A DNA stretch of 64,000 bases. Origin: Geothrix sp. 21YS21S-2. Lineage in GTDB: Bacteria; Acidobacteriota; Holophagae; Holophagales; Holophagaceae. Positions 18,826 through 30,469 of this stretch are shown here, in pieces (the stretch's first letter is position 1; each line of letters begins with the position of its first letter). The stretch lies in contig NZ_CP132910.1 of assembly GCF_030846775.1 (NCBI RefSeq), positions 530,001-594,000 of the forward strand. Reading direction: 5' to 3'. Under the pieces are notes generated by a model. It was not told the DNA's origin. It saw only the letters and a list, made by a program, of their open reading frames with translations, and did not search any database. A program made the translations under genes and the position numbers.

Positions 18826-20931
18826 CTAGATGACGCTGGGGAGGGGTTCCGCCGTCCCGCCCACCACGAGGGCGGGGCAGAGGATGGTGGGCAGGGCGTC
18901 CGAAACGGGAACCCCCTGGCCGTCCTTGCCGCAGGTGCCGATGTCGAAGTGGTCCAGGTCCCGTCCGATGCGGGTGATCTCCTTGAGCACCGTGGGCCCG
19001 CATCCCGTGAGGGTGGCGTTGCGCACCGGGTGCTTGACGACGCCCCCCTCCACCCAGTAGCCCTCGGTGACCTGGAAGACGAAGTTGCCGGTGACGGTGT
19101 CCACCTGGCCCCCGCCCATGTGCTTGACGAGGAGGCCCCGGTCCAGGTCCTTGAGGATCGCCGCCGGGTCCTCCTGGCCAGGAGCCAGGAAGGTGTTGCG
19201 CATGCGGGGGATGGGGATGTGGCGGTAGCTCTCGCGCCGGCCGTTGCCCGTGGGCTCCACGCCCATCCTGCGGGCGGTCTTGCGGGACTGGAGGTAGGAC
19301 TTGAGCACGCCGTTCTCGATGAGCACGACCCGCTGGGCGGCGCGGCCCTCGTCGTCGCAGGCCGAGGACCCGCGCTTGTGGGGCAGGGTGCCGTCGTCGA
19401 TGATCGTGACGAAGTCGGCGGCCACCTTCTGCCCCAGCTTGCCGGAGAACGCGCTAACCCCGGCCAGGGCCAGGTCGGCCTCGAGCCCGTGGCCGCAGGC
19501 CTCGTGGATCATGGTGCCGCCGGCGCTGGAGGAGAGGATCACGGGGAAGGTGCCCGCCGGGGCGGGCAGGGCGTCCAGGGCCTGGATGGCCAGGCGCACC
19601 GCCTCGTGCACCGTGCGCTCCACCTCCTGGGAATGGAACAGCTCGAAGCCCCGGGTCTGGCCCAGGGCCTGGTACCCGGTCTGGAGCAGCTCGCCCGCGC
19701 CCGCGGTGACGTTCACGCGCAGCACGCTCTGGATGCGGCGGTCCTCGGTGAGGGTGGCGGTCCAGGCGCCGTCCACGCGCTCGGCGGAGGCGATCCAGAC
19801 GCTCTGGGTGCTGTCGCCGTAGCCCACGGCCACCTGGCGCAGGGCGCCGGGCCGGAGGGTCTCCGCGCGCCGCCGGGCGAGGTACTCGGCCCGGCGCACC
19901 AGGTCGACCTTCTCGGGCAGCGGCACCGCGGCGGGTTCGCGCTCGATGGGGCTGGGCTTGGGAAGGAGCTGGGGCGCGAGCTCGGGGATGGAGGCCGCCA
20001 CCCCGGCGCCGGGGGCGGCCAGGGTGCGGGCCGCGTCCAGGAGCTCCGCGGCGGTGGGGGCGATGAGGTCGGCGAACCGGGTGGTCTCCCCGTCCATGAG
20101 CCGAAGGCCCACGCCGAAGGTCTCCCCGGCGGCCACGTCCTCCATGCGGCCGTCGTCCATGCCCAGGCCGCAGGCGCGGCGGTGCTCCACGAAGACCTCG
20201 CCGTAGTCGCCGCCCCGGCTGAGCAGGGTCTCGAGGGTGGCGCGGAGCTGCTCGGCGTCGAAGGGGGCGGTCATGGGCGGGCGCCACTTCCGGCTCCGGG
20301 AGGTCTTCCAGTGGGCCAGGAGGTTCTCCTCGGCCTTGTGCAGGGACTCGTCCAGGTCGCGGCCGTCGTTGTGGAAGACCTGGTCGGCGTGCAGCAGCTT
20401 CTCGGCGCCCGCGCTCTGGGCGTAGATGCGGTCCATGGCCCTCGCGGTGTCCAGGCCGTCGCGCTCCATGAGGCGCTTGAGGCGGATCTCCTCGGGGGCG
20501 TCCACCACCCACAGGGCGTCGAAGATGTGGGCCTGGCCGCGCTCGACCCAGAGGGCCGCGTCCAGGACCACGCCCTTGATCGTGGTGGGCAGCGCGCGGA
20601 GCTTGTCGGCGAGACGCGTCTCGATGAGCGGGTGGAGGATGGCCTCCAGGCGCTCCCGGTTGGCGGGGTCGGAGAACACCAGGGTGGCCATCCGCTCCCG
20701 GTCCAGGGTGCCGGCTTCGCCGAGGATGCCGGAGCCGAACGCCTGCACCAGGGCGGCCAGGCCCGGGGTGCCCGGTTCCACCACCTCGCGGGCCACCTGG
20801 TCGGCGTTGATGATCTCCCAGCCCAGGACCTTCAGGCGCTTGGAGGCGTAGGTCTTGCCGGCGGCGATGCCCCCCGTGAGGCCCACGACGGGGTAGGGGG
20901 CCTCCACCAGGCGCTTGTTCAGGGTTGTCAT
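18826..20931 (-). CDS. coaE: Dephospho-CoA kinase fused to TldD-type metalloprotease
   Basis: A single 701-residue frame. Residues about 12-205 are CoaE: P-loop GGIAAGKT at 20-27, then INADQVAREVV and the lid segment; this adds the 3' phosphate in the last step of CoA synthesis. Residues about 220-701 are TldD: the zinc motif HEACGH at 476-481 within TMIHEACGHGLEAD, GSSACDDEGRAAQ and the C-terminal GNFVFQVTEGYWVEGG region. No stop separates the halves. An internal ATG at 20274 could start TldD alone but has no clear ribosome site. CoaE and TldD are normally separate; a real fusion or a bicistron without a stop are the options. It leads the macro-TldE operon. Confidence 0.85.
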   Translation of the reverse strand: MTTLNKRLVEAPYPVVGLTGGIAAGKTYASKRLKVLGWEIINADQVAREVVEPGTPGLAALVQAFGSGILGEAGTLDRERMATLVFSDPANRERLEAILHPLIETRLADKLRALPTTIKGVVLDAALWVERGQAHIFDALWVVDAPEEIRLKRLMERDGLDTARAMDRIYAQSAGAEKLLHADQVFHNDGRDLDESLHKAEENLLAHWKTSRSRKWRPPMTAPFDAEQLRATLETLLSRGGDYGEVFVEHRRACGLGMDDGRMEDVAAGETFGVGLRLMDGETTRFADLIAPTAAELLDAARTLAAPGAGVAASIPELAPQLLPKPSPIEREPAAVPLPEKVDLVRRAEYLARRRAETLRPGALRQVAVGYGDSTQSVWIASAERVDGAWTATLTEDRRIQSVLRVNVTAGAGELLQTGYQALGQTRGFELFHSQEVERTVHEAVRLAIQALDALPAPAGTFPVILSSSAGGTMIHEACGHGLEADLALAGVSAFSGKLGQKVAADFVTIIDDGTLPHKRGSSACDDEGRAAQRVVLIENGVLKSYLQSRKTARRMGVEPTGNGRRESYRHIPIPRMRNTFLAPGQEDPAAILKDLDRGLLVKHMGGGQVDTVTGNFVFQVTEGYWVEGGVVKHPVRNATLTGCGPTVLKEITRIGRDLDHFDIGTCGKDGQGVPVSDALPTILCPALVVGGTAEPLPSVI

Positions 20932-20967: not shown

Positions 20968-22494
20968 CTACGCCCTGGGGGTGCCTGCCATTATGCCCAT
21001 TTCCTGCCGCCTTGCGTATCTCCAGGCGTTGAGAATGATGCAGCCCGCGTAGAAGGCGGTGAACAGGTGCAGGGCGCGCTGGGGCGTGCCCGCGTCCACC
21101 TGGATCTTGAAAATGGCAGGAACCAGGAAGCTGCCGTAGGCCGCCACCGCCGAGATCCACCCCACCGTGGGGGCCGCCATGCCCGGGGCCGTGACCTGGG
21201 GCGCCATCTGGAAGACGGCCCCGTTGCCCAGTCCCGTGGCCACGAAGAGGAGGAGGAACAGCCCCAGGAAGGGGGGGAAGAAGGCCTCGGGCGCCGGCGC
21301 CCCCTGGGCCCGCACGACGAAGTGCGCCACGCCCAGGGCGCCGACGCCCATGAGCGCGAAGGAGAGCTGGGCCACGTGGCTGCCCTTCCATCTGTCGGCG
21401 AGCCAGCCCCCCACGGGCCGGAAGAGGCTGCCCACCAGGGGGCCCAGCCAGGCGTAGGCCATGGCGCGGGGCGCGTGGGTGTTCACCATGCCGCCCGGAA
21501 GGCGCCCGAAGACCACGTTGATGAGCAGGGGCAGGGCGCCGCTGAACCCGATGAAGCTGCCGAACGTGCCCAGGTAGAGGACCGTGAGCCCCCAGGTGTC
21601 GGGCTTGCGGAACATCAGGAACTGGGAGGCGAGCCGTTCGCTGACGCGCCCGGGGATGAGCTTGAGCAGCCCCAGGGAGGCCAGGATGGTCCCCAGCAGC
21701 ACGCCCACCTGGGCCGCCAGGCCCAGCCTGAACGACAGCAGCAGCGCCACGCCCGCGGCCGAGACCGCCAGCCCCAGCGCGTGGAGGCCCAGGATCTTGA
21801 GGACCGCGGGCCCGAGGGGCTCGGCGTCCTGTCCCGGCAGGTTGTCCATGAACACCCACGCCAGCACGGAGAGCAGGGCCAGCACGGGCACCCACACCAG
21901 GGCGCCGTTGGCCAGGTAGAGGGGCGCCTTGCCGCCCAGGGAACCGAAGAGCCCCACGCCGATGACCGCGGGGATCGCCACCTGCATGACGCTGACCCCC
22001 AGGTTCCCCAGCCCGCCGTTGAGCCCCAGGGCCGTTCCCGCCAGGCGCTTGGGGAAGAATCCCGGGATGTTGGCCATGCTGGAGGCGAAGTTCCCCCCGC
22101 CGATGCCCGAGAGGGTGGCCAGGACGGCGAAGGTCGAGAAGGGCGTGTGGGTGTCCCGCAGCGCCAGCCCGGCTCCCAGGGCCGGAACGATCAGGAGGGC
22201 CGTGGTGATGGCGACGGTGTTCCGGCCCCCCGCCAGCGGCACCAGGAACGCGCTGGGAATGCGCAGCGTGGCACCCGCCAGCCCCGCGATGCTGATGAGC
22301 GTGAAGAGCTGCGCGGGCGGGAACGGGAACCCCGCGTCCCGCATGCGCACCGCGAGGATGGACCAGAACATCCACACGGAGAAGGCCACGAGGAGGGCCG
22401 GGATGGAGACCGCGAGGTTCCGCCAGGCGACGGCCTTCTGCCCGGACTCCCAGGCGGCGGGGTCCTCGGGGTTCCACGAGGTGATCTTGGGCAT
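20968..22494 (-). CDS. narK: NarK-type nitrate/nitrite transporter (MFS)
   Basis: A 508-residue protein with about 12 hydrophobic segments. The nitrate signature is GNFASSMANIPGFFPKR followed by GLNGGLGNLGVS, matching the two Gly-rich signature motifs of NarK transporters; helix 10-11 contains TGLGNGAVFQMAP. It imports nitrate and/or exchanges nitrite across the inner membrane. It is the last gene of the minus-strand nitrate reductase operon. NarK presence implies that the nitrate-reducing site faces the cytoplasm. Confidence 0.92.
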   Translation of the reverse strand: MPKITSWNPEDPAAWESGQKAVAWRNLAVSIPALLVAFSVWMFWSILAVRMRDAGFPFPPAQLFTLISIAGLAGATLRIPSAFLVPLAGGRNTVAITTALLIVPALGAGLALRDTHTPFSTFAVLATLSGIGGGNFASSMANIPGFFPKRLAGTALGLNGGLGNLGVSVMQVAIPAVIGVGLFGSLGGKAPLYLANGALVWVPVLALLSVLAWVFMDNLPGQDAEPLGPAVLKILGLHALGLAVSAAGVALLLSFRLGLAAQVGVLLGTILASLGLLKLIPGRVSERLASQFLMFRKPDTWGLTVLYLGTFGSFIGFSGALPLLINVVFGRLPGGMVNTHAPRAMAYAWLGPLVGSLFRPVGGWLADRWKGSHVAQLSFALMGVGALGVAHFVVRAQGAPAPEAFFPPFLGLFLLLFVATGLGNGAVFQMAPQVTAPGMAAPTVGWISAVAAYGSFLVPAIFKIQVDAGTPQRALHLFTAFYAGCIILNAWRYARRQEMGIMAGTPRA

Positions 22495-22549
22495 GAAGAC
22501 TCCTTGAATGAATTCCTTTTTTCCCCTCGCCGAGGAGGCCGGGAAAAGA

Positions 22550-22756
22550 TCAATTCCTGTTGTCCAGGTCTTTCGCCTTGAAGGCCAACACGAGCGCCAC
22601 GGCGGTCAACAGGAGGGACACGATGAAGGCCCCGGCCAGCATCCCCCGCTGGCCGTCCAGGACGGCGCCCAGGACGGTCTCGAAAAGATAGGTCTGGATC
22701 AGCACGATCAGCAGCACCACGGCCAGCGCGGCGCCCGTGAAGACGGAGCGGTTCAT
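22550..22756 (-). CDS. Small membrane protein of the nitrate reductase operon
   Basis: A 68-residue protein with two hydrophobic segments (about residues 7-28 and 38-60) and a short charged end (KAKDLDNRN). Its ATG overlaps the Rieske stop by four bases (ATGA), so translation is coupled and the protein probably belongs to the enzyme complex. No domain is recognised. It may serve as an anchor or assembly subunit for the Rieske or membrane subunit. The gap to narK is 55 bp. Confidence 0.8.
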   Translation of the reverse strand: MNRSVFTGAALAVVLLIVLIQTYLFETVLGAVLDGQRGMLAGAFIVSLLLTAVALVLAFKAKDLDNRN

Positions 22757-23265
22757 GCGGGGCTCCCTTCTCCGGGCTTGGGCAGGTCCCCCACGACCCA
22801 GATGTCGCCGTCGCGCAGTTCCACGTGCAGGCGGGACAGAGGTCGGGTCGGAGGGCCCGCGGTGGGGAAGCCCTGTACAACCTCGAAGCGGCCGTTGTGG
22901 CAGGGGCACTCCAGGCCCTTGCCGTCCCAGCGCACGGCGCAGCCCAGGTGGGTGCAGGTCTGGCGGTAGGCGCGCCACTGGTCCCCGGGGGTGCGCACGA
23001 GGATGCAGCGGTCCTGGGGGTCGCGGTAGGTGAACAGGTAGCTGTTGCCGGGGGCCACGTCGTCGGCGCGGCAGAGGCGGAGCTCCCGGGGGGCGTCGGC
23101 GGGGGCGGCGGGGGCGCCGTCCAAAGGCTTCTTCCGGAGGCCCAGGTAGCCGATGCCGCCGGTGAAGCCGGCGCTCACCAGGGCCAGGAACCGCGCGAAC
23201 TCCCGCCGGGAGAGCCGTCCCTCCTCGGCCAGATCCACGGGGAAAAGCGATTTCCAGCCGGCCAT
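22753..23265 (-). CDS. Rieske [2Fe-2S] protein with twin-arginine anchor
   Basis: A 170-residue protein. The twin-arginine motif SRREFARF (residues 19-26) precedes a hydrophobic helix (27-43). The Rieske domain carries ligands C104 and H106 in CTHLGC and C120 and H123 in CPCHNG, with C109 and C122 able to form the usual disulfide. This is the layout of quinol-oxidising Rieske subunits, held by an uncleaved N-terminal helix with the cluster outside. Start overlaps the Fe-S gene stop by one base (TGATG). It could pass electrons between quinol and the membrane subunit of the nitrate reductase. Confidence 0.92.
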   Translation of the reverse strand: MAGWKSLFPVDLAEEGRLSRREFARFLALVSAGFTGGIGYLGLRKKPLDGAPAAPADAPRELRLCRADDVAPGNSYLFTYRDPQDRCILVRTPGDQWRAYRQTCTHLGCAVRWDGKGLECPCHNGRFEVVQGFPTAGPPTRPLSRLHVELRDGDIWVVGDLPKPGEGSPA

Positions 23266-23845
23266 CAGAGGTCTCCTTCGATGAGGATCGAGGCATCCAG
23301 GTTCAGGGGGATCTCCGGGTCGGGCACCATGATCGCGTTGCGGGTGCGGATCGTCAGGGCGCCGATCCGGAACTCCCGCAGGGGCTTCGAGCCGCGCAGG
23401 GCGGCCACCTCGTGCTTCGGCACGAAGAGCAGGGCCTGGCTGGGACACACGGTGGCGCACATGGGTTTCAGGCCGACGGAGCTCCGGTCGTAGCACAGGT
23501 CGCACTTGAGCATCTGCTCCAGGCCGGGCAGCACGATGGGCACGCCGAAGGGGCAGCTCAGCTCGCAGTTCTGGCACGCGACGCACCGGGGCTTCTGGCT
23601 GGCGTGCACCACGCCGTCCTCGGTGCGCTTGATGGCGTCGGCGGGGCAGCTCATGGCGCAGATGGGGTCCTCGCAGTGCATGCACACGGTGGGCCCGGTC
23701 TGGGTGGAGGCCAGGCGGTCCAGCTCGTCCAGGTGGATCATGGAGACGCCGCGGTGGGTGCCGCACTCCGCGCAGGCCGCCACGCAGGACCGGCAGCCGA
23801 TGCAGCGCTGGGGGTCGATGAAGAAGCCGAACTCCTCGCTGACCA

Positions 23846-23846
<1 letters not shown>
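23265..23846 (-). CDS. 4Fe-4S ferredoxin-type electron-transfer subunit
   Basis: A 193-residue protein with four cysteine clusters of the DmsB/NrfC/PsrB type: RCIGCRSCVAACAECG (residues 14-29), VCMHCEDPICAMSCP, RCVACQNCELSCP and KCDLCYDR with a later CATVCPS. It carries electrons from the membrane part to the molybdenum subunit. No signal peptide is seen, so it is cytoplasmic like the catalytic subunit. ATG 23846 overlaps the catalytic gene stop (TGATG). Confidence 0.92.
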
Positions 23847-26071
<2,225 letters not shown>

Positions 26072-26073
26072 GG

Positions 26074-27138
26074 TCAGCTCTCCAGGGGTTCCACGGGCAC
26101 CGGCGTGTCCGCGAAGGGATCGAAGGCGCCGCCCAGGCGCAGGCTCTGGGCCTTCATCACCAGGCGCCGCCTGCAGCGGGGGCACAGGTCGAGGTGGTGC
26201 GCGCCGGCTTCCAGGCCCAGCTCCTTCCATAGCACGCGCAGGTCCCGGTGCTGGTTGGGGCGGATGAAGGGCGTGGCGCAGGCCCTGCAGGGCAGGAGGC
26301 CGAGGGCGTCCCCTTCGGCCTTGTAGAGCTTCACGCCGGCCTGGGCGGGGCGCTGGACGATGTGGAAGAGCTTGCCGAAGGGCAGGCTCAGGAGCATGAG
26401 GATGACGGTCATCTCATGCAGGTACGCCAGGGTCCCGAAGTTGCGGCCCTGGAGCCAGGTCTCGGAGGCGGTGAGCAGGAGCCCGGTGACGGAGACGGCG
26501 ATGAGCAGGAGCAGGGGCAGGATGTCCAGGTCGAAGCGCTGGGTGGCCGTGTCGCCCTCGTCCCGGCTGCGGCGCACGAAGGCCAGGACGCAGCCGGTGA
26601 TGACCATGACGGCGGCCAGGTCCAGGATGTGGAAGGCGGCGAAGGCGGCGAACCCCCCCAGGGGGAAGCTCCCCGCCGGCAGGCCCAGGACCCAGGCCTG
26701 GTAGCGGTCCGCATTGGGCCCGTCGCTGGTGAAGCGCACCCACCCGAAGACCAGGGGGAAGGTGACGGAGAAGGCCAGGAGGCATCCCCAGGCCAGCAGG
26801 GCGTGGGCGCCCCAGCGCCTGATGGAGCGCTTGCCGATGAAACGCTGCAGGAACAGCTGGTCCAGCAGGATCAAGGGCAGGCGCAGCAGCACGCGGGGCG
26901 TCAGGAGGGTGCGCAGGGTCCAGCGCCAGTACATGCCCGTGGCGGGCCGCTCCAGCCAGGTGAAGTACCGGTAGGCCACGCCGAAGCACGCGAAGAGCGA
27001 GGCGATGAGGTAGCCCAGGAGGGCCGGATCCAGCCAGCGGCCTCCGCCGTTGCCCAGGGCGACCAGGCCGGCCAGGGCCACGGTGGCCAGGGTCGCCCGC
27101 GCCAGGGGCCGAAGTTCCAACTCCAACAGGGCGAGCAT
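26074..27138 (-). CDS. Membrane subunit, NarI/cytochrome b-like, with C-terminal zinc-ribbon-like tail
   Basis: A 354-residue membrane protein with about six hydrophobic segments. Histidines near the membrane face ([33 protein letters not shown]) could ligate b hemes, as in NarI/DsrM proteins. The last 80 residues carry CRAC and CPRC pairs, a likely zinc or Fe-S ribbon. ATG 27138 is chosen because GAGGTGG precedes it; a GTG six bases up is possible. It is the first gene of the nitrate reductase operon and would connect the quinone pool to the Fe-S subunits. Assignment to a named family is tentative. Confidence 0.75.
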
Positions 27139-27199: not shown

Positions 27200-27213
27200 T
27201 TGACGCAGATCAA
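27200..27213 (-). promoter_or_regulatory. FNR/CRP-type site upstream of the nitrate reductase operon
   Basis: The minus strand reads TTGATCTGCGTCAA, matching TTGAT-N4-ATCAA with one mismatch. It lies 62 nt upstream of the first operon start and overlaps the cbiO stop region. The position fits a class II activator site for FNR-like (anaerobic) or NNR/DNR-like (NO) regulators. No close FNR gene is in the window. Confidence 0.6.
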
Positions 27214-27962
27214 GACGCTCCGCAAATCGGGCAGCCCTGCATGGAAAGGGGCTTCTCCAGCCGGCAGGTGGCCAGGAGCCGCTCGTCCCGGAAGATCTCC
27301 CGGGTGGGCCCGTCGGCCATGAGGGTCCCCTCGTGGATCACCAGGGTGCGCGGGCAGAGGTCCATGACCAGGTCCAGGTCGTGGGTGGCGATGACCATGG
27401 TGTGGCCGAAGACCTTCAGGAGCTCGGCCAGGTGGCGCCGGCTGCGGGGGTCCAGGCCCGAGGTGGGCTCGTCCATGACGAGGATCTCGGGCTCCATGGC
27501 CAGGGCGGTGGCGATGGCCACGCGGCGCTTCTCGCCCGACGACAGACGGTAGGGGGGCTTCTTCGCAAGCGCCAGGGCGTCCACGGTCTCCAGGGCCGCA
27601 CGCACCCGCGCCTCCACCTCGGCGGGCGCCAGGCCCAGGTTCTGGGGGCCGAAGGCCACGTCCTGGGCCACGGTGGGCATGAAGAGCTGGTCGTCGGGAT
27701 CGTGGAAGACCATGCCCACGCGCCGGCGCAGCTCCGGGAGATGGGCCGGATCGACGGGGTGGCCTCCCACCTCGAGCGCGCCGCTCGAGGGGAACACCGT
27801 GCCGATGAGGTGCTGGAGCAGGGTGGACTTGCCCGCGCCGTTGGCGCCCACCAGGGCCACCGACTCGCCCGGCAGGACCCGGAACGTGACGCCGCGCAGG
27901 GCCTCGGTGCCGTCGGGGTAGCGGTAGCGGAGGTCCGCCGCCTCGATGATGGGCCGCGTCAT
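27210..27962 (-). CDS. cbiO: Nickel/cobalt ECF transporter ATP-binding protein
   Basis: A 250-residue ABC ATPase of the energy-coupling-factor type: Walker A VGANGAGKSTLL, Q-loop DPDDQLF with the CbiO-like FMPTVAQDVAFGPQNLG, signature LSSGEKRRVAIA, Walker B ILVMDEPTSGLD and the H-loop THD. The C-terminus has CPIC. It powers uptake through CbiQ and CbiM. The start overlaps the cbiQ stop by four bases (ATGA). The downstream gap to the nitrate operon is 71 bp on the same strand. The metal may be nickel or cobalt. Confidence 0.92.
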   Translation of the reverse strand: MTRPIIEAADLRYRYPDGTEALRGVTFRVLPGESVALVGANGAGKSTLLQHLIGTVFPSSGALEVGGHPVDPAHLPELRRRVGMVFHDPDDQLFMPTVAQDVAFGPQNLGLAPAEVEARVRAALETVDALALAKKPPYRLSSGEKRRVAIATALAMEPEILVMDEPTSGLDPRSRRHLAELLKVFGHTMVIATHDLDLVMDLCPRTLVIHEGTLMADGPTREIFRDERLLATCRLEKPLSMQGCPICGAS

Positions 27963-28765
27963 GCCGCGCCTCCGGTGAGCAGGTCGCCGAGGATCCGCGG
28001 CAGGTTCCAGAACCTCAGCGCGGCGAAGGACGCGGCGCACAGGACGGTGAACAGGAGGTCGCGCGCCTTCCAGGCCAGGGGCCGGGGTTCCGGGAAGTGG
28101 CCGGTGAAGCCCCGGCTGAGCATGGCCATGTGGATGCGCCGGGCCCGGTCCCAGGCCCGCAGCAGGAGGTGCCCGGCCAGGGTGGCGAACTCGCCCGGGG
28201 CGAGCTTCCTCCCGAAGGCCCGCAGGGTCCTGGCGCGGTGGATGCGCAATGTCTCCGAGCCCAGGACGAAGGCGTAGCGGTGGAGGAAGGCCACCTGCTG
28301 CGCGAAGGCCCGCGGCGCCCCCAGGCGCTCCAGGCCCAGGCATACGCCGTCCATGCTGGTGGTGGCCACCAGCACCAGCGCCGCGCCCACGGTGAGGGCG
28401 AAGCGCAGGAGGATCGAGGCGAAGGACACCCAGCCCCCCGACACCGCCACGGGACCCAGGGTGATCAGGGGCGCGCGGTCCAGCACGGGGTTGAGGGCCC
28501 CCAGGAGCAGCACGAAGGGCAGGGCCGCCAGCATCCGCCTCCCGATGAAGCCGGCCGGGATGCCGCCCAGGGCCATGAGCGCGGCGGGAAAGAGGGCGAA
28601 GGGCACCAGGGCCGCCACCTCGTACCGCCCGAAGGAGGCCACCGTGACGATGAACAGGCCCGTGGCCAAGAGCTTGGCCCGGGGGTCCAGGCGGTGCACG
28701 GCACTGTCGCCCTGGGCGAGGTCGTCGAGGGTGCCGAAGTGGAGGAGGGACGCGAGGCCGGTCAC
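27959..28765 (-). CDS. cbiQ: Nickel/cobalt ECF transporter membrane protein
   Basis: A 268-residue CbiQ/NikQ protein with 5-6 hydrophobic segments. Family motifs visible are the N-terminal SAVHRLDPRAKL and the cytoplasmic coupling helix RAWDRARRIHMAMLSRGFTG, close to the Ala-Arg-Gly motifs used by this group to bind the ATPase. GTG 28765 is taken as the start: its GTGA overlaps the cbiM stop, indicating translational coupling. Function is transfer of energy to the substrate-binding CbiM. Confidence 0.9.
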   Translation of the reverse strand: MTGLASLLHFGTLDDLAQGDSAVHRLDPRAKLLATGLFIVTVASFGRYEVAALVPFALFPAALMALGGIPAGFIGRRMLAALPFVLLLGALNPVLDRAPLITLGPVAVSGGWVSFASILLRFALTVGAALVLVATTSMDGVCLGLERLGAPRAFAQQVAFLHRYAFVLGSETLRIHRARTLRAFGRKLAPGEFATLAGHLLLRAWDRARRIHMAMLSRGFTGHFPEPRPLAWKARDLLFTVLCAASFAALRFWNLPRILGDLLTGGAA

Positions 28766-29715
28766 GCGGGCTTCCGCAGGGCCTTGAGGCCCAGGGCGGC
28801 CAGCGCCACCAGCGCGAGGGTCGCCGCGCCGCCCAGGAGCCCCGCCAGGGACGTCTGGGCCCGGGAGGGCTCCCCCCGTCCCTTGAGGGCGTAGTCGGGC
28901 ATGGGGGCCGCTTCCCGGGCCCGGGCGGAGGCCCGGTGCAGAGGATCCTGCGCGGCGCGGGGCTCGCCCCCGGCCACCCGGGCCACGGCCCGCTCCAGGC
29001 CGTCGGGGTAGCGCGAGGCGGCCCAGGAGAGGCAACCGCCCGTGAACAGGGCCAGGAGGCCCACCAGGGCCGCGGCCTTCCAGCCTCCCCCAGGCTCGCC
29101 TTCCACCAGTTCCGGCCGCGCGTGGCGGAGGAACCGCACCACCGCCACCGTGGCGGCGCCCTCCACCAGGCCGATGACCAGGTGGATGGGCACCAAGGCC
29201 GCCAGGAAGGTACGGAAGGGAAGGGACGAGATGCCGGAGAGGCGCGTCTCCAGCGCCACCGCCCCGGCGCCCAGCCCCAGGGCCGCCAGGGCCGCCAGGA
29301 AGGTGGCGGCCCCACGGGCCCGACCCGCGAGCGGACGGTAGAGCAGGGGGTAGGCGATGAAGGCCGGGATGAAACCCATGTTGAACAGGTTGCACCCCAG
29401 CGCCAGGAGGCCGCCGTCCGCGAAGAAGAGCGCCTGGACCAGGAGCACCGAGGCGAGCGTCAGGAAGGCGGCCTGGGGCCCCAGGAGGATGGCCAGCAGG
29501 AGTCCCCCGCCCAGGTGCCCGCTGGAGCCGGTGCCCGGGATGGAGAAGTTGACCATCTGGATGGCGAAGGTGAAGGCGCCCAGCACCCCGGTGAGGGGGA
29601 CCGAGACGGCCGTCCCCCGGGACGTCCCCTGGCCGCTGCGATAGAGGGCCGTACCCGATACCGCCCAGAACGCCGCGCCCACGAACGGGGAGACGAGGGC
29701 ATCGGACATGTGCAT
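28762..29715 (-). CDS. cbiM: Nickel/cobalt ECF transporter substrate-specificity protein, CbiM with PDGLE domain
   Basis: A 317-residue protein. The N-terminus MHMSDALVSPFVG carries the His2 metal-binding feature of CbiM/NikM (M-H-x-x-D). Seven or more hydrophobic segments follow, with NFSIPGTGSSGHLGGG as the substrate loop. The C-terminal part contains the PDGLE motif (SRYPDGLERAV) and a final helix, a CbiN-like piece fused in, so a separate cbiN is not needed. It binds nickel or cobalt and hands it through the membrane. It starts a three-gene operon with coupled ends. No cobalamin riboswitch is seen in the short upstream gap. Confidence 0.92.
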   Translation of the reverse strand: MHMSDALVSPFVGAAFWAVSGTALYRSGQGTSRGTAVSVPLTGVLGAFTFAIQMVNFSIPGTGSSGHLGGGLLLAILLGPQAAFLTLASVLLVQALFFADGGLLALGCNLFNMGFIPAFIAYPLLYRPLAGRARGAATFLAALAALGLGAGAVALETRLSGISSLPFRTFLAALVPIHLVIGLVEGAATVAVVRFLRHARPELVEGEPGGGWKAAALVGLLALFTGGCLSWAASRYPDGLERAVARVAGGEPRAAQDPLHRASARAREAAPMPDYALKGRGEPSRAQTSLAGLLGGAATLALVALAALGLKALRKPA

Positions 29716-29794
29716 CGGGACTCCAACCAGGCCGGCGGCGACGCGAACCGGAGTCCTTCATTCTGCCTCAACCGCGGGCGGCCGTGTTGGGTGG

Positions 29795-30469
29795 TCAGGC
29801 CAGGGCCGCGTTCACGATCTTCGCCCGGATGGAGGGGCTCTTGAGGTGGTCCGTGAGGGTGCACTCGAAGGCGAGCCATTCGCCGTTTCTGTGCCGCAGC
29901 CGGAAGTTCCGGGAGGTCGCCGACCCGGGGCCCTCGCCCAGCAGGGCAGCCTGGAAGCGGAGGCGGTCGTCGGCGTGGATGATGTCGAGCACCGACAGGC
30001 CCAGCACCTCGGCGCGCTTGTGCCCCAGGAGGTTCTCCCCGCCGGGGGAAAGGTAGATGATCCGGCCCTGGGAGTCCAGGACGAGCACCAGTTCGCTGCT
30101 GTGGGCGAGGAGCGCCTCGAAGCGCTCCACCACATCCACGAGGCTCTGCCACATGGCCTTGGGCACGGGCCAGTAGAGGTCGGCCTCCGGGTTGGAGGTC
30201 TCGGCGCCCGCCCGGAAGTCCCGGACGGGTCCCGCCTGGGGTGCGGCGTCCGGGGCGCCCGTCCACAGGTCCCCGTGGCCGAAGAATTCCGGCAGGGTGG
30301 TGTTCATGGCCCTGCAGAGGCAGTCGATGGTGTCGATGCGTGGGGACACATGGCCCAGTTCGATCCGGCTGATGGTGCCCCGGTCGATTCCGCTCCTGCC
30401 TGCAAGCTGATCCAGCGTCAGGTTGTATTTTTTCCTGACTTTCCTTAGGTGTGCACCCGTATCGAACAT
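29795..30469 (-). CDS. HTH (XRE-type)-PAS regulator
   Basis: A 224-residue protein. Residues 5-60 are an XRE helix-turn-helix (LRKVRKKYNLTLDQLAGRSGIDRGTISRIELG), and residues about 115-215 are a PAS domain (LVLVLDSQGRIIYLSPGGENLLGHKRAEVLG, then HADDRLRF and FRLRHRNGEWLAFECTL). It is therefore a one-component DNA-binding sensor; the ligand is unknown. It lies upstream of cbiM on the same strand with 79 bp between, so it could regulate metal uptake or the nitrate genes. No second domain is seen. Confidence 0.88.
   Translation of the reverse strand: MFDTGAHLRKVRKKYNLTLDQLAGRSGIDRGTISRIELGHVSPRIDTIDCLCRAMNTTLPEFFGHGDLWTGAPDAAPQAGPVRDFRAGAETSNPEADLYWPVPKAMWQSLVDVVERFEALLAHSSELVLVLDSQGRIIYLSPGGENLLGHKRAEVLGLSVLDIIHADDRLRFQAALLGEGPGSATSRNFRLRHRNGEWLAFECTLTDHLKSPSIRAKIVNAALA

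What the first reader, a model, noticed from the sequence alone, without database searches (positions are those of the whole stretch)
20968..27138. Nitrate reductase operon with a Rieske subunit and NarI-like anchor
The order membrane protein, Mo catalytic subunit, Fe-S protein, Rieske protein, small membrane protein and narK differs from NarGHJI and NapAB. It may be a quinol-linked enzyme combining a NasA-like catalytic unit with a bc1-type Rieske protein.
Basis: partly seen in the sequence, partly recalled or inferred. Interest (0 to 1): 0.6.

Follow-up and report, generated by a model that had tools for sequence, protein, structure and literature searches.

The report
Membrane nitrate reductase with Rieske subunit
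A five-gene set, found in at least six bacterial phyla, looks like a respiratory enzyme that turns nitrate into nitrite but is built from a different mix of parts than the textbook nitrate reductases, and it may explain how many soil bacteria that seem to lack such an enzyme breathe nitrate.

Summary
The operon is real and at the stated coordinates. Six abutting minus-strand genes encode a NarI-fold cytochrome b, a molybdopterin catalytic subunit, a four-cluster Fe-S protein, a Tat/TM-tethered Rieske protein, a two-helix DUF6755 protein and NarK. The catalytic subunit is a nitrate reductase by phylogeny (own clade, sister to NasC, formate dehydrogenases rejected) and by its invariant Cys-Met active-site pair (95 of 95). 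It fails the NarG, NapA, NasC and formate dehydrogenase cut-offs. Anchor, catalytic, Fe-S and Rieske genes stay together on one strand in 61 of 62 distinct loci with enough flank (57 with DUF6755), in Acidobacteriota, Planctomycetota, Armatimonadota, Myxococcota, Binatota and Deinococcota. In 8 of 100 anchors NarK is fused to the anchor. Of 59 sampled Acidobacteriota that carry it, 39 have neither NarG nor NapA, 2 have NirB, 33 have NrfA. Best reading: a cytoplasm-facing, membrane-bound, quinol-linked respiratory nitrate reductase, often feeding nitrite ammonification. The substrate is well supported; the Rieske wiring and sidedness are inferred. I found no description in the papers searched.

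The parts
26074..27138 (-). NarI-fold integral membrane anchor (putative di-heme cytochrome b, 354 aa) with a C-terminal CxxC...CxxC segment
   Evidence: ORF; weak QmoC/TmcC/NarI hits; fold: NarI Z 10.7, EtfD Z 11.7; H112 100/101, H241 101/101, H259 101/101, H170 81/101
26173..26289 (-). C-terminal Cys4 motif C284xxC287 ... C319xxC322 of the anchor, predicted cytoplasmic
   Evidence: C284 and C287 101/101, C319 100/101, C322 99/101; charge pattern
23846..26071 (-). Mo-bis-MGD-type catalytic subunit, NasC-sister clade (741 aa), no Tat signal
25568..25573 (-). codons of active-site pair Cys167-Met168 (nitrate-reductase-type; His follows in formate dehydrogenases)
   Evidence: alignment with references; 95/95 C and 95/95 M
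23265..23846 (-). ferredoxin-type subunit with 16 conserved cluster cysteines (four [4Fe-4S]-type motifs, 193 aa)
   Evidence: Fer4_11; each of the 16 cysteines in at least 91 of 92; nearest PDB FdnH-type beta subunits
22753..23265 (-). Rieske [2Fe-2S] protein with an N-terminal SRREF Tat-like motif and one weakly hydrophobic helix (170 aa)
   Evidence: PF00355; RRx[hydrophobic] in 85 of 86; helix 20-48; nearest AioB
22939..22956 (-). Rieske ligand motif 1, CTHLGC (C104, H106)
   Evidence: C104, H106, C109 87/87
22897..22908 (-). Rieske ligand motif 2, CPCH (C122, H123 among them), followed by G125 and F127
   Evidence: 87/87 at C120, C122, H123, G125, F127
22550..22756 (-). DUF6755 small membrane protein (68 aa, two hydrophobic helices), start overlaps the Rieske stop
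   Evidence: PF20540 32 bits (cut-off 27); TM 11-29, 39-57; present in 57 of 62 loci
20968..22494 (-). NarK/NarU-family nitrate/nitrite transporter (508 aa)
   Evidence: NarU subfamily 278 bits and NarK TIGR00886 259 bits, both below cut-off; MFS_1 36.4 bits

Best explanation
The five genes encode one membrane-bound respiratory nitrate reductase. Shown from sequence: the catalytic subunit belongs to the nitrate-reductase branch next to NasC; it is nearly always co-encoded with a 16-Cys Fe-S protein, a NarI-fold membrane protein with four His that could pair up as two heme sites, a Tat/TM-tethered Rieske protein and DUF6755. Inferred: quinol is oxidised at the outer face of the membrane, electrons cross through the b hemes (outer H170/H241, inner H112/H259) to the Fe-S protein and then to the cytoplasmic Mo site, where nitrate becomes nitrite, so that charge is separated as in NarGHI. 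The Rieske domain sits outside next to the outer heme as a one-electron partner of quinol oxidation or as a second entry point for electrons. DUF6755 helps to hold Rieske and anchor together. NarK exchanges nitrate and nitrite, and nitrite often goes on to the periplasmic ammonifying reductase NrfA.
For: Phylogeny: 25 module rows form one clade (100/100), sister to 5 NasC-type rows (100/98), formate dehydrogenases apart, AU p 2.9e-137 against module+FDH. Active site Cys-Met 95/95 and GGREHG/GREQG-type loop (R369, E370 95/95), against Cys/Sec-His and CDMG/SDAG/GDMG in FDH references. The nearest non-module relatives sit beside nirB and nitrate transporters. Synteny 61 of 62 distinct loci. NarK on the same strand within 9 kb in 30 of 62, fused to the anchor in 8 of 100. 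Fold: NarI Z 10.7 and EtfD Z 11.7, against 6.4 or less for all unrelated rows. Cytoplasmic face: no Tat signal on the catalytic subunit (3 of 81 pattern hits, all three upstream of the likely start Met); positively charged loop 2 and C-terminus. Respiratory not assimilatory: NirB 2 of 59, NrfA 33 of 59 against 65 of 337. NarG itself lies within 30 kb on the same contig in 9 of the 10 Holophagaceae that have both. Neighbours include NrfA, Ric/ScdA, CRP-type regulators, Rrf2, SLAC1.
Against: No biochemistry. H170, the supposed outer heme ligand, is Asn in 20 of 101 anchors, so a two-heme path is not universal. The Rieske has no obvious electron partner. Its nearest relative AioB works in the periplasm beside its Mo subunit (relatedness; location recalled), which leaves an all-periplasmic complex open. 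Many carriers also have NarG (17 of 59), so it is not simply a NarG replacement. 18 of 59 carriers have none of NarG, NapA, NrfA, NirB. NarK was found near only 30 of 62 loci at my search depth. Within Holophagaceae NrfA does not track the module (16 of 22 against 13 of 17).
Confidence: 0.68

Rival explanations
1. Same enzyme, but periplasmic: the catalytic and Fe-S subunits, which lack signals of their own, are carried out by Tat together with the Rieske protein (hitch-hiking, as recalled for arsenite oxidase AioAB), and the complex takes electrons from the quinol pool outside.
For: Rieske bears a Tat-like RRx[hydrophobic] motif in 85 of 86; it is nearest to AioB by profile and fold; the Fe-S, Rieske and DUF6755 genes form their own block ahead of the anchor and catalytic genes in 4 of 62 loci (order FRDKIC in 3, FRDICK in 1).
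Against: NarK is adjacent in 30 of 62 loci and fused to the anchor in 8 of 100, which fits a cytoplasmic site much better; the Cys4 tail and charge pattern of the anchor point inward; a WRxDFPID-like stretch precedes the RR motif in many Rieske rows, so the signal is unlikely to be cleaved (read by eye).
Confidence: 0.15
2. An assimilatory nitrate reductase that happens to be quinol-linked and serves nitrogen supply.
For: Sister clade is assimilatory NasC; Eichorst et al. 2018 annotate nasA in several Acidobacteria (PMC5900883, passages).
Against: NirB in only 2 of 59 carriers; NrfA enriched outside Holophagaceae, 17 of 37 against 52 of 320; NarG islands alongside; a membrane cytochrome, DUF6755 and a tethered Rieske are not parts of NasC-NirBD systems. 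NirA-type nitrite reductases were not tested.
Confidence: 0.12
3. The Rieske is the electron entry, not a helper of quinol oxidation: periplasmic cytochrome c (for example from Fe(II) or from another complex) reduces the Rieske, which passes electrons through the b hemes to nitrate, making a cytochrome c:nitrate oxidoreductase.
For: H170 is Asn in 20 of 101 anchors, so the outer heme may be altered; AioB meets a cytochrome c (8ed4 is listed as the arsenite oxidase-cytochrome c552 complex); Streptomyces Nar1 is proposed to take electrons from the bcc complex at heme bD (PMC7931247, passages).
Against: No cytochrome c gene is a regular neighbour in the clusters I annotated; 11 of 26 carriers tested have no bc-type cytochrome b, so no bc complex would feed it in them.
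Confidence: 0.15
4. A formate dehydrogenase or other non-nitrate molybdoenzyme.
For: TIGR01591 Fdh-alpha scores 587 bits.
Against: Below the Fdh cut-off of 666; NasC scores 804; Cys-Met instead of Cys/Sec-His; FDH grouping rejected; NarK neighbours.
Confidence: 0.02

Closest known systems
NasC-type assimilatory nitrate reductase (NF047855; Paenibacillus and Mycobacterium NasC with nirB)
   Same: Closest catalytic subunit (43-47% identity in the nearest records, sister clade 100/98); same Cys-Met and [12 protein letters not shown] loop.
   Different: Module catalytic subunits score 788-804 bits against a cut-off of 1100 (Paenibacillus NasC 1165, Mycobacterium NasC 790); anchored by NarI-fold, Fe-S, Rieske and DUF6755 subunits; almost never with NirB (2 of 59).
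NarGHI respiratory nitrate reductase
   Same: Three-part logic: Mo subunit, four-cluster Fe-S subunit, NarI-fold di-heme anchor; NarK alongside.
   Different: Mo subunit is not NarG (65 bits against 1084); the anchor is 354 aa with an extra N-terminal helix and Cys4 tail and without a Pfam-level NarI match; extra Rieske and DUF6755; no narJ in the operon.
NapA periplasmic nitrate reductase
   Same: Cys-Met active site.
   Different: No Tat signal; TIGR01706 248 bits against 931; no NapB, C or D in the operon.
Arsenite oxidase AioAB (and iodate reductase IdrAB, recalled)
   Same: A molybdoenzyme whose partner is a Tat-exported Rieske (recalled); AioB is the best PDB match of the Rieske.
   Different: Catalytic subunit is not AioA (160 bits against 359); extra Fe-S protein and membrane cytochrome.
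Haloarchaeal pNar with narB Rieske and narC cytochrome b; Methanoperedens and Caldithrix nitrate reductases with Rieske/cytochrome b
   Same: A Rieske and a cytochrome b encoded with or proposed to feed a nitrate reductase (PMC2483277, PMC4683180, PMC5317091: passages).
   Different: Those use NarG- or NapA-type enzymes outside the membrane and a bc1-type cytochrome b; here a NasC-type enzyme and a NarI-fold anchor.

Membership tests
NarGHI | NarG-type catalytic subunit (TIGR01580) | tested here: not met
   65.3 bits against cut-off 1084
NarGHI | NarI-fold di-heme cytochrome b anchor | tested here: inconclusive
   Fold match Z 10.7 to NarI, 182 residues, rmsd 5.1, standing above unrelated rows but below the 13 advised for helical bundles; PF02665 19 bits against 22.9; four His, one of them Asn in 20 of 101
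NarGHI | narJ chaperone gene in the operon | tested here: not met
   No narJ among the six genes
NapA | NapA equivalog score and Tat signal | tested here: not met
   247.7 bits against 930.55; no Tat signal
NasC assimilatory nitrate reductase | NF047855 equivalog score | tested here: not met
   804 bits against 1100; sister clade in the tree. The cut-off is strict: a Mycobacterium NasC beside nirB also falls short (790 bits)
NasC assimilatory nitrate reductase | NirB partner for nitrite assimilation | tested here: not met
   NirB in 2 of 59 carriers, and not in the window's genome
Nitrate reductase of the Nas/Nap branch (broad) | Phylogenetic place and Cys-Met active site | tested here: met
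Nitrate reductase of the Nas/Nap branch (broad) | Nitrate reduction activity | not testable with these tools
   No biochemistry available
Formate dehydrogenase | TIGR01591 score; Cys/Sec followed by His | tested here: not met
   586.7 bits against 666.25; Met follows in 95 of 95
Arsenite oxidase AioAB | AioA and AioB equivalog scores | tested here: not met
   AioA 160.2 against 359.05; AioB 20.8 against 95.65
Cytochrome bc1/b6f complex | bc-type cytochrome b with the Rieske protein | tested here: not met
   No cytochrome b domain in the operon; Rieske equivalogs TIGR01416 30.1 against 97.4, NF045928 37.4 against 250; 11 of 26 carriers have no PF00033 at E 1e-8

The most novel reading that the evidence does not exclude
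A separate class of respiratory nitrate reductase in which a Rieske cluster and the outer heme of a NarI-fold cytochrome form a bc1-like quinol-oxidising site: a convergent, Rieske-assisted (possibly bifurcating) quinol:nitrate oxidoreductase that is neither Nar nor Nap and is a main nitrate-respiring enzyme of Acidobacteriota, Planctomycetota (Phycisphaerales) and Armatimonadota.
Probability: 0.2. Interest if true: 0.85.

Novelty: new variant of a known kind. Interest (0 to 1): 0.64.

Why it matters
Nitrate respiration is usually scored from narG and napA. Eichorst et al. [quoted passage not shown] If this module is respiratory, such annotations are misread: 59 of 396 sampled Acidobacteriota carry it and 39 of these have neither narG nor napA, so nitrate-respiring and ammonifying capacity in soils is undercounted. 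It also gives a second structural solution for joining a Rieske cluster to a quinol enzyme, without cytochrome bc1. Whether G. mallensis and KBS 96 themselves carry it I did not test.

Tried and rejected
Formate dehydrogenase reading: rejected by tree, active site and scores. Assimilatory NasC-NirBD reading: weakened by NirB in 2 of 59. Idea that the Deinococcus module lacks the anchor (its product is labelled 'MFS transporter' in the record): wrong, the 370-aa product is the NarI-like anchor (42% identity). Idea that the module stands in for NarG: rejected, NarG is commoner in carriers (17 of 59) than in others (25 of 337), p 1.4e-5 without correction for shared ancestry. Sequence search of the anchor profile against PDB found nothing at E 1; plain Foldseek gave no hit under 0.001 and ranked receptors first, so the NarI fold rests on VIA-align. 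Promoter and terminator scans found nothing above shuffles. The literature searches (ten in all) listed no paper describing this gene set; DUF6755 gave 0 papers; I read only search listings and passages, never a whole paper. That some known family is not in the fold lists excludes nothing.
Full report
WHAT IS THERE. The first five overlap or abut within 2 bases, so they read as one transcription unit. The window is bases 530001-594000 of a 5.25 Mb single-contig genome whose relatives are Holophagaceae, Acidobacteriota.

CATALYTIC SUBUNIT. Pfam finds the three usual molybdopterin domains. Among NCBIfam models the best is assimilatory NasC (804 bits, cut-off 1100), then formate dehydrogenase alpha (587, cut-off 666); NarG gives 65 of 1084 and NapA 248 of 931. 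In a tree of 48 rows the 25 module rows form one clade (100/100) that is sister to five NasC-type rows (100/98); six formate dehydrogenases and nine other nitrate reductases form their own clades; holding module and FDH together is rejected (p-AU 2.9e-137). The NasC rows sit beside nirB in Paenibacillus, Mycobacterium and Deinococcus gobiensis; the Arthrobacter and Streptantibioticus stretches carry no annotation. The active-site Cys is followed by Met in 95 of 95 module proteins, as in the NapA, NasA and NasC references; two NarB-type rows have Thr; all six FDH references have His there. Tree caveats: three own-genome molybdoenzymes used as outgroup have long branches, and the NasC clade itself is only 85/70.

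PARTNERS. The Fe-S protein keeps 16 cysteines in four motifs (each in at least 91 of 92). The anchor has no PDB relative by sequence. Its model (pLDDT 86) matches mycobacterial EtfD (Z 11.7) and E. coli NarI (Z 10.7), with all unrelated rows at 6.4 or less; this is suggestive, not proof, since helical bundles can reach such scores. H112, H241 and H259 are conserved in at least 100 of 101 anchors; H170 is Asn in 20 of 101, mostly Acidobacteriaceae-type loci and one Binatia. Charge counts put loop 2 and the C-terminus inside, so H170/H241 would lie near the outer and H112/H259 near the inner face. H241 and H259 are 18 residues apart, as I recall for the NarI ligands H187 and H205. A Cys4 tail is almost invariant. 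The Rieske keeps both ligand motifs in 87 of 87 and an RRx[hydrophobic] motif in 85 of 86. Its nearest PDB sequences are AioB, then Thermus bc1 Rieske, and its top-ranked fold match is AioB (Z 15.4, with Rieske ferredoxins tied within 1). Gly and Phe stand where, as I recall, the high-potential bc1 Rieske has Ser and Tyr, which hints at a lower potential. DUF6755 has two hydrophobic helices.

CONSERVATION AND SPREAD. The anchor was found in 74 of 396 Acidobacteriota genomes at E 0.001, 59 of them at E 1e-50 or better. Among plasmids, 4 of 187 records with a match at E 1e-100 hold a catalytic subunit at 60-80% identity, all Deinococcus; the three that I read carry catalytic, Fe-S, Rieske and DUF6755 genes, an upstream gene labelled 'MFS transporter', which one search shows to be the anchor in the first, and a further transporter. 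In 62 distinct loci with at least 5.5 kb on either side, anchor, catalytic, Fe-S and Rieske are on one strand in 61, with DUF6755 in 57 and NarK in 30. The one exception is a NarK-anchor fusion without the rest (L049). The order is anchor-catalytic-FeS-Rieske-(DUF6755) in 57, and the Fe-S-Rieske-DUF6755 block comes first in 4. NarK is fused to the anchor in 8 of 100. Other neighbours: NrfA, Ric/ScdA, CRP-type and Rrf2 regulators, SLAC1, YwiC, HPP.

PHYSIOLOGY FROM CO-OCCURRENCE. Of the 59 carriers, 17 have NarG (25 of 337 others), 5 NapA, 2 NirB and 33 strong NrfA (65 of 337 others; strong means E 1e-40 or better); 39 have neither NarG nor NapA, and 20 of those have NrfA. Outside Holophagaceae the NrfA link is 17 of 37 against 52 of 320; inside it there is none (16 of 22 against 13 of 17). 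These tests ignore shared ancestry. In 9 of 10 Holophagaceae with both, NarG lies within 30 kb of the module on the same contig. The window's own genome has a NapA next to NrfA elsewhere, no NarG and no NirB, so here the module would be a second nitrate reductase. A bc-type cytochrome b is missing at E 1e-8 in 11 of 26 carriers tested, among them 7 of 8 in genus g2 (Geothrix by contig match), so the Rieske does not depend on a bc complex.

READING. The simplest account is a cytoplasm-facing, quinol-linked respiratory nitrate reductase: NasC-type Mo subunit, four-cluster wire, NarI-fold transmembrane cytochrome, with a Rieske added outside. Nitrate as substrate is strongly supported by phylogeny, active site, NarK fusion and islands. 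Sidedness is moderately supported. The Rieske's role is open: helper of quinol oxidation, entry from cytochrome c, or, if the complex is periplasmic, a link as in AioAB.

AGAINST WHAT IS KNOWN. Rieske proteins have been linked to nitrate reductases in haloarchaea, Methanoperedens and Caldithrix (passages), and Streptomyces Nar1 depends on the bcc-aa3 supercomplex (passages); all of these use NarG or NapA. NasC with NirD-type Rieske is the assimilatory case (PMC3475470, passages). None of the passages I saw describes this gene set, and ten searches listed nothing on it; subscription papers and preprints are not held, so this is not proof of absence. I file it as a new variant of a known kind: nitrate reductase chemistry in an apparently undescribed, widespread subunit architecture.

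Noticed in passing
L144:6889-8001; also L164 and L165: The NarI-like anchor of a Deinococcus plasmid is annotated 'MFS transporter' (same label on the matching gene in two more plasmids), probably because homologues elsewhere are fused to NarK.
   Followed up: partly
A1/A3 column of window anchor residue H170: The supposed outer heme ligand is Asn in 20 of 101 anchors (Acidobacteriaceae-type loci and one Binatia), while H241 stays.
   Followed up: partly
L049:9211-11835: A NarK-anchor fusion ORF of 874 aa without catalytic, Fe-S or Rieske genes nearby.
   Followed up: no
window 18826-20931 (-): One 701-aa ORF matches dephospho-CoA kinase (residues 15-195) and metalloprotease TldD (225-694); a fusion or a lost stop.
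   Followed up: no
L001; own genome C1:1546211-1549865 (-): The window's genome has a Tat-signal NapA directly downstream of NrfA, with a heme c protein after it: a second, periplasmic route from nitrate to ammonium.
   Followed up: partly
G065, G106, G115, G133, G142, G150, G174, G220, G384: In these Holophagaceae genomes narG lies within 30 kb of the module on the same contig, forming nitrate islands.
   Followed up: partly
window 27210-30469 (-): Upstream of the operon lie a CbiM/CbiQ/ATPase cobalt- or nickel-type transporter and an HTH-PAS regulator.
   Followed up: no
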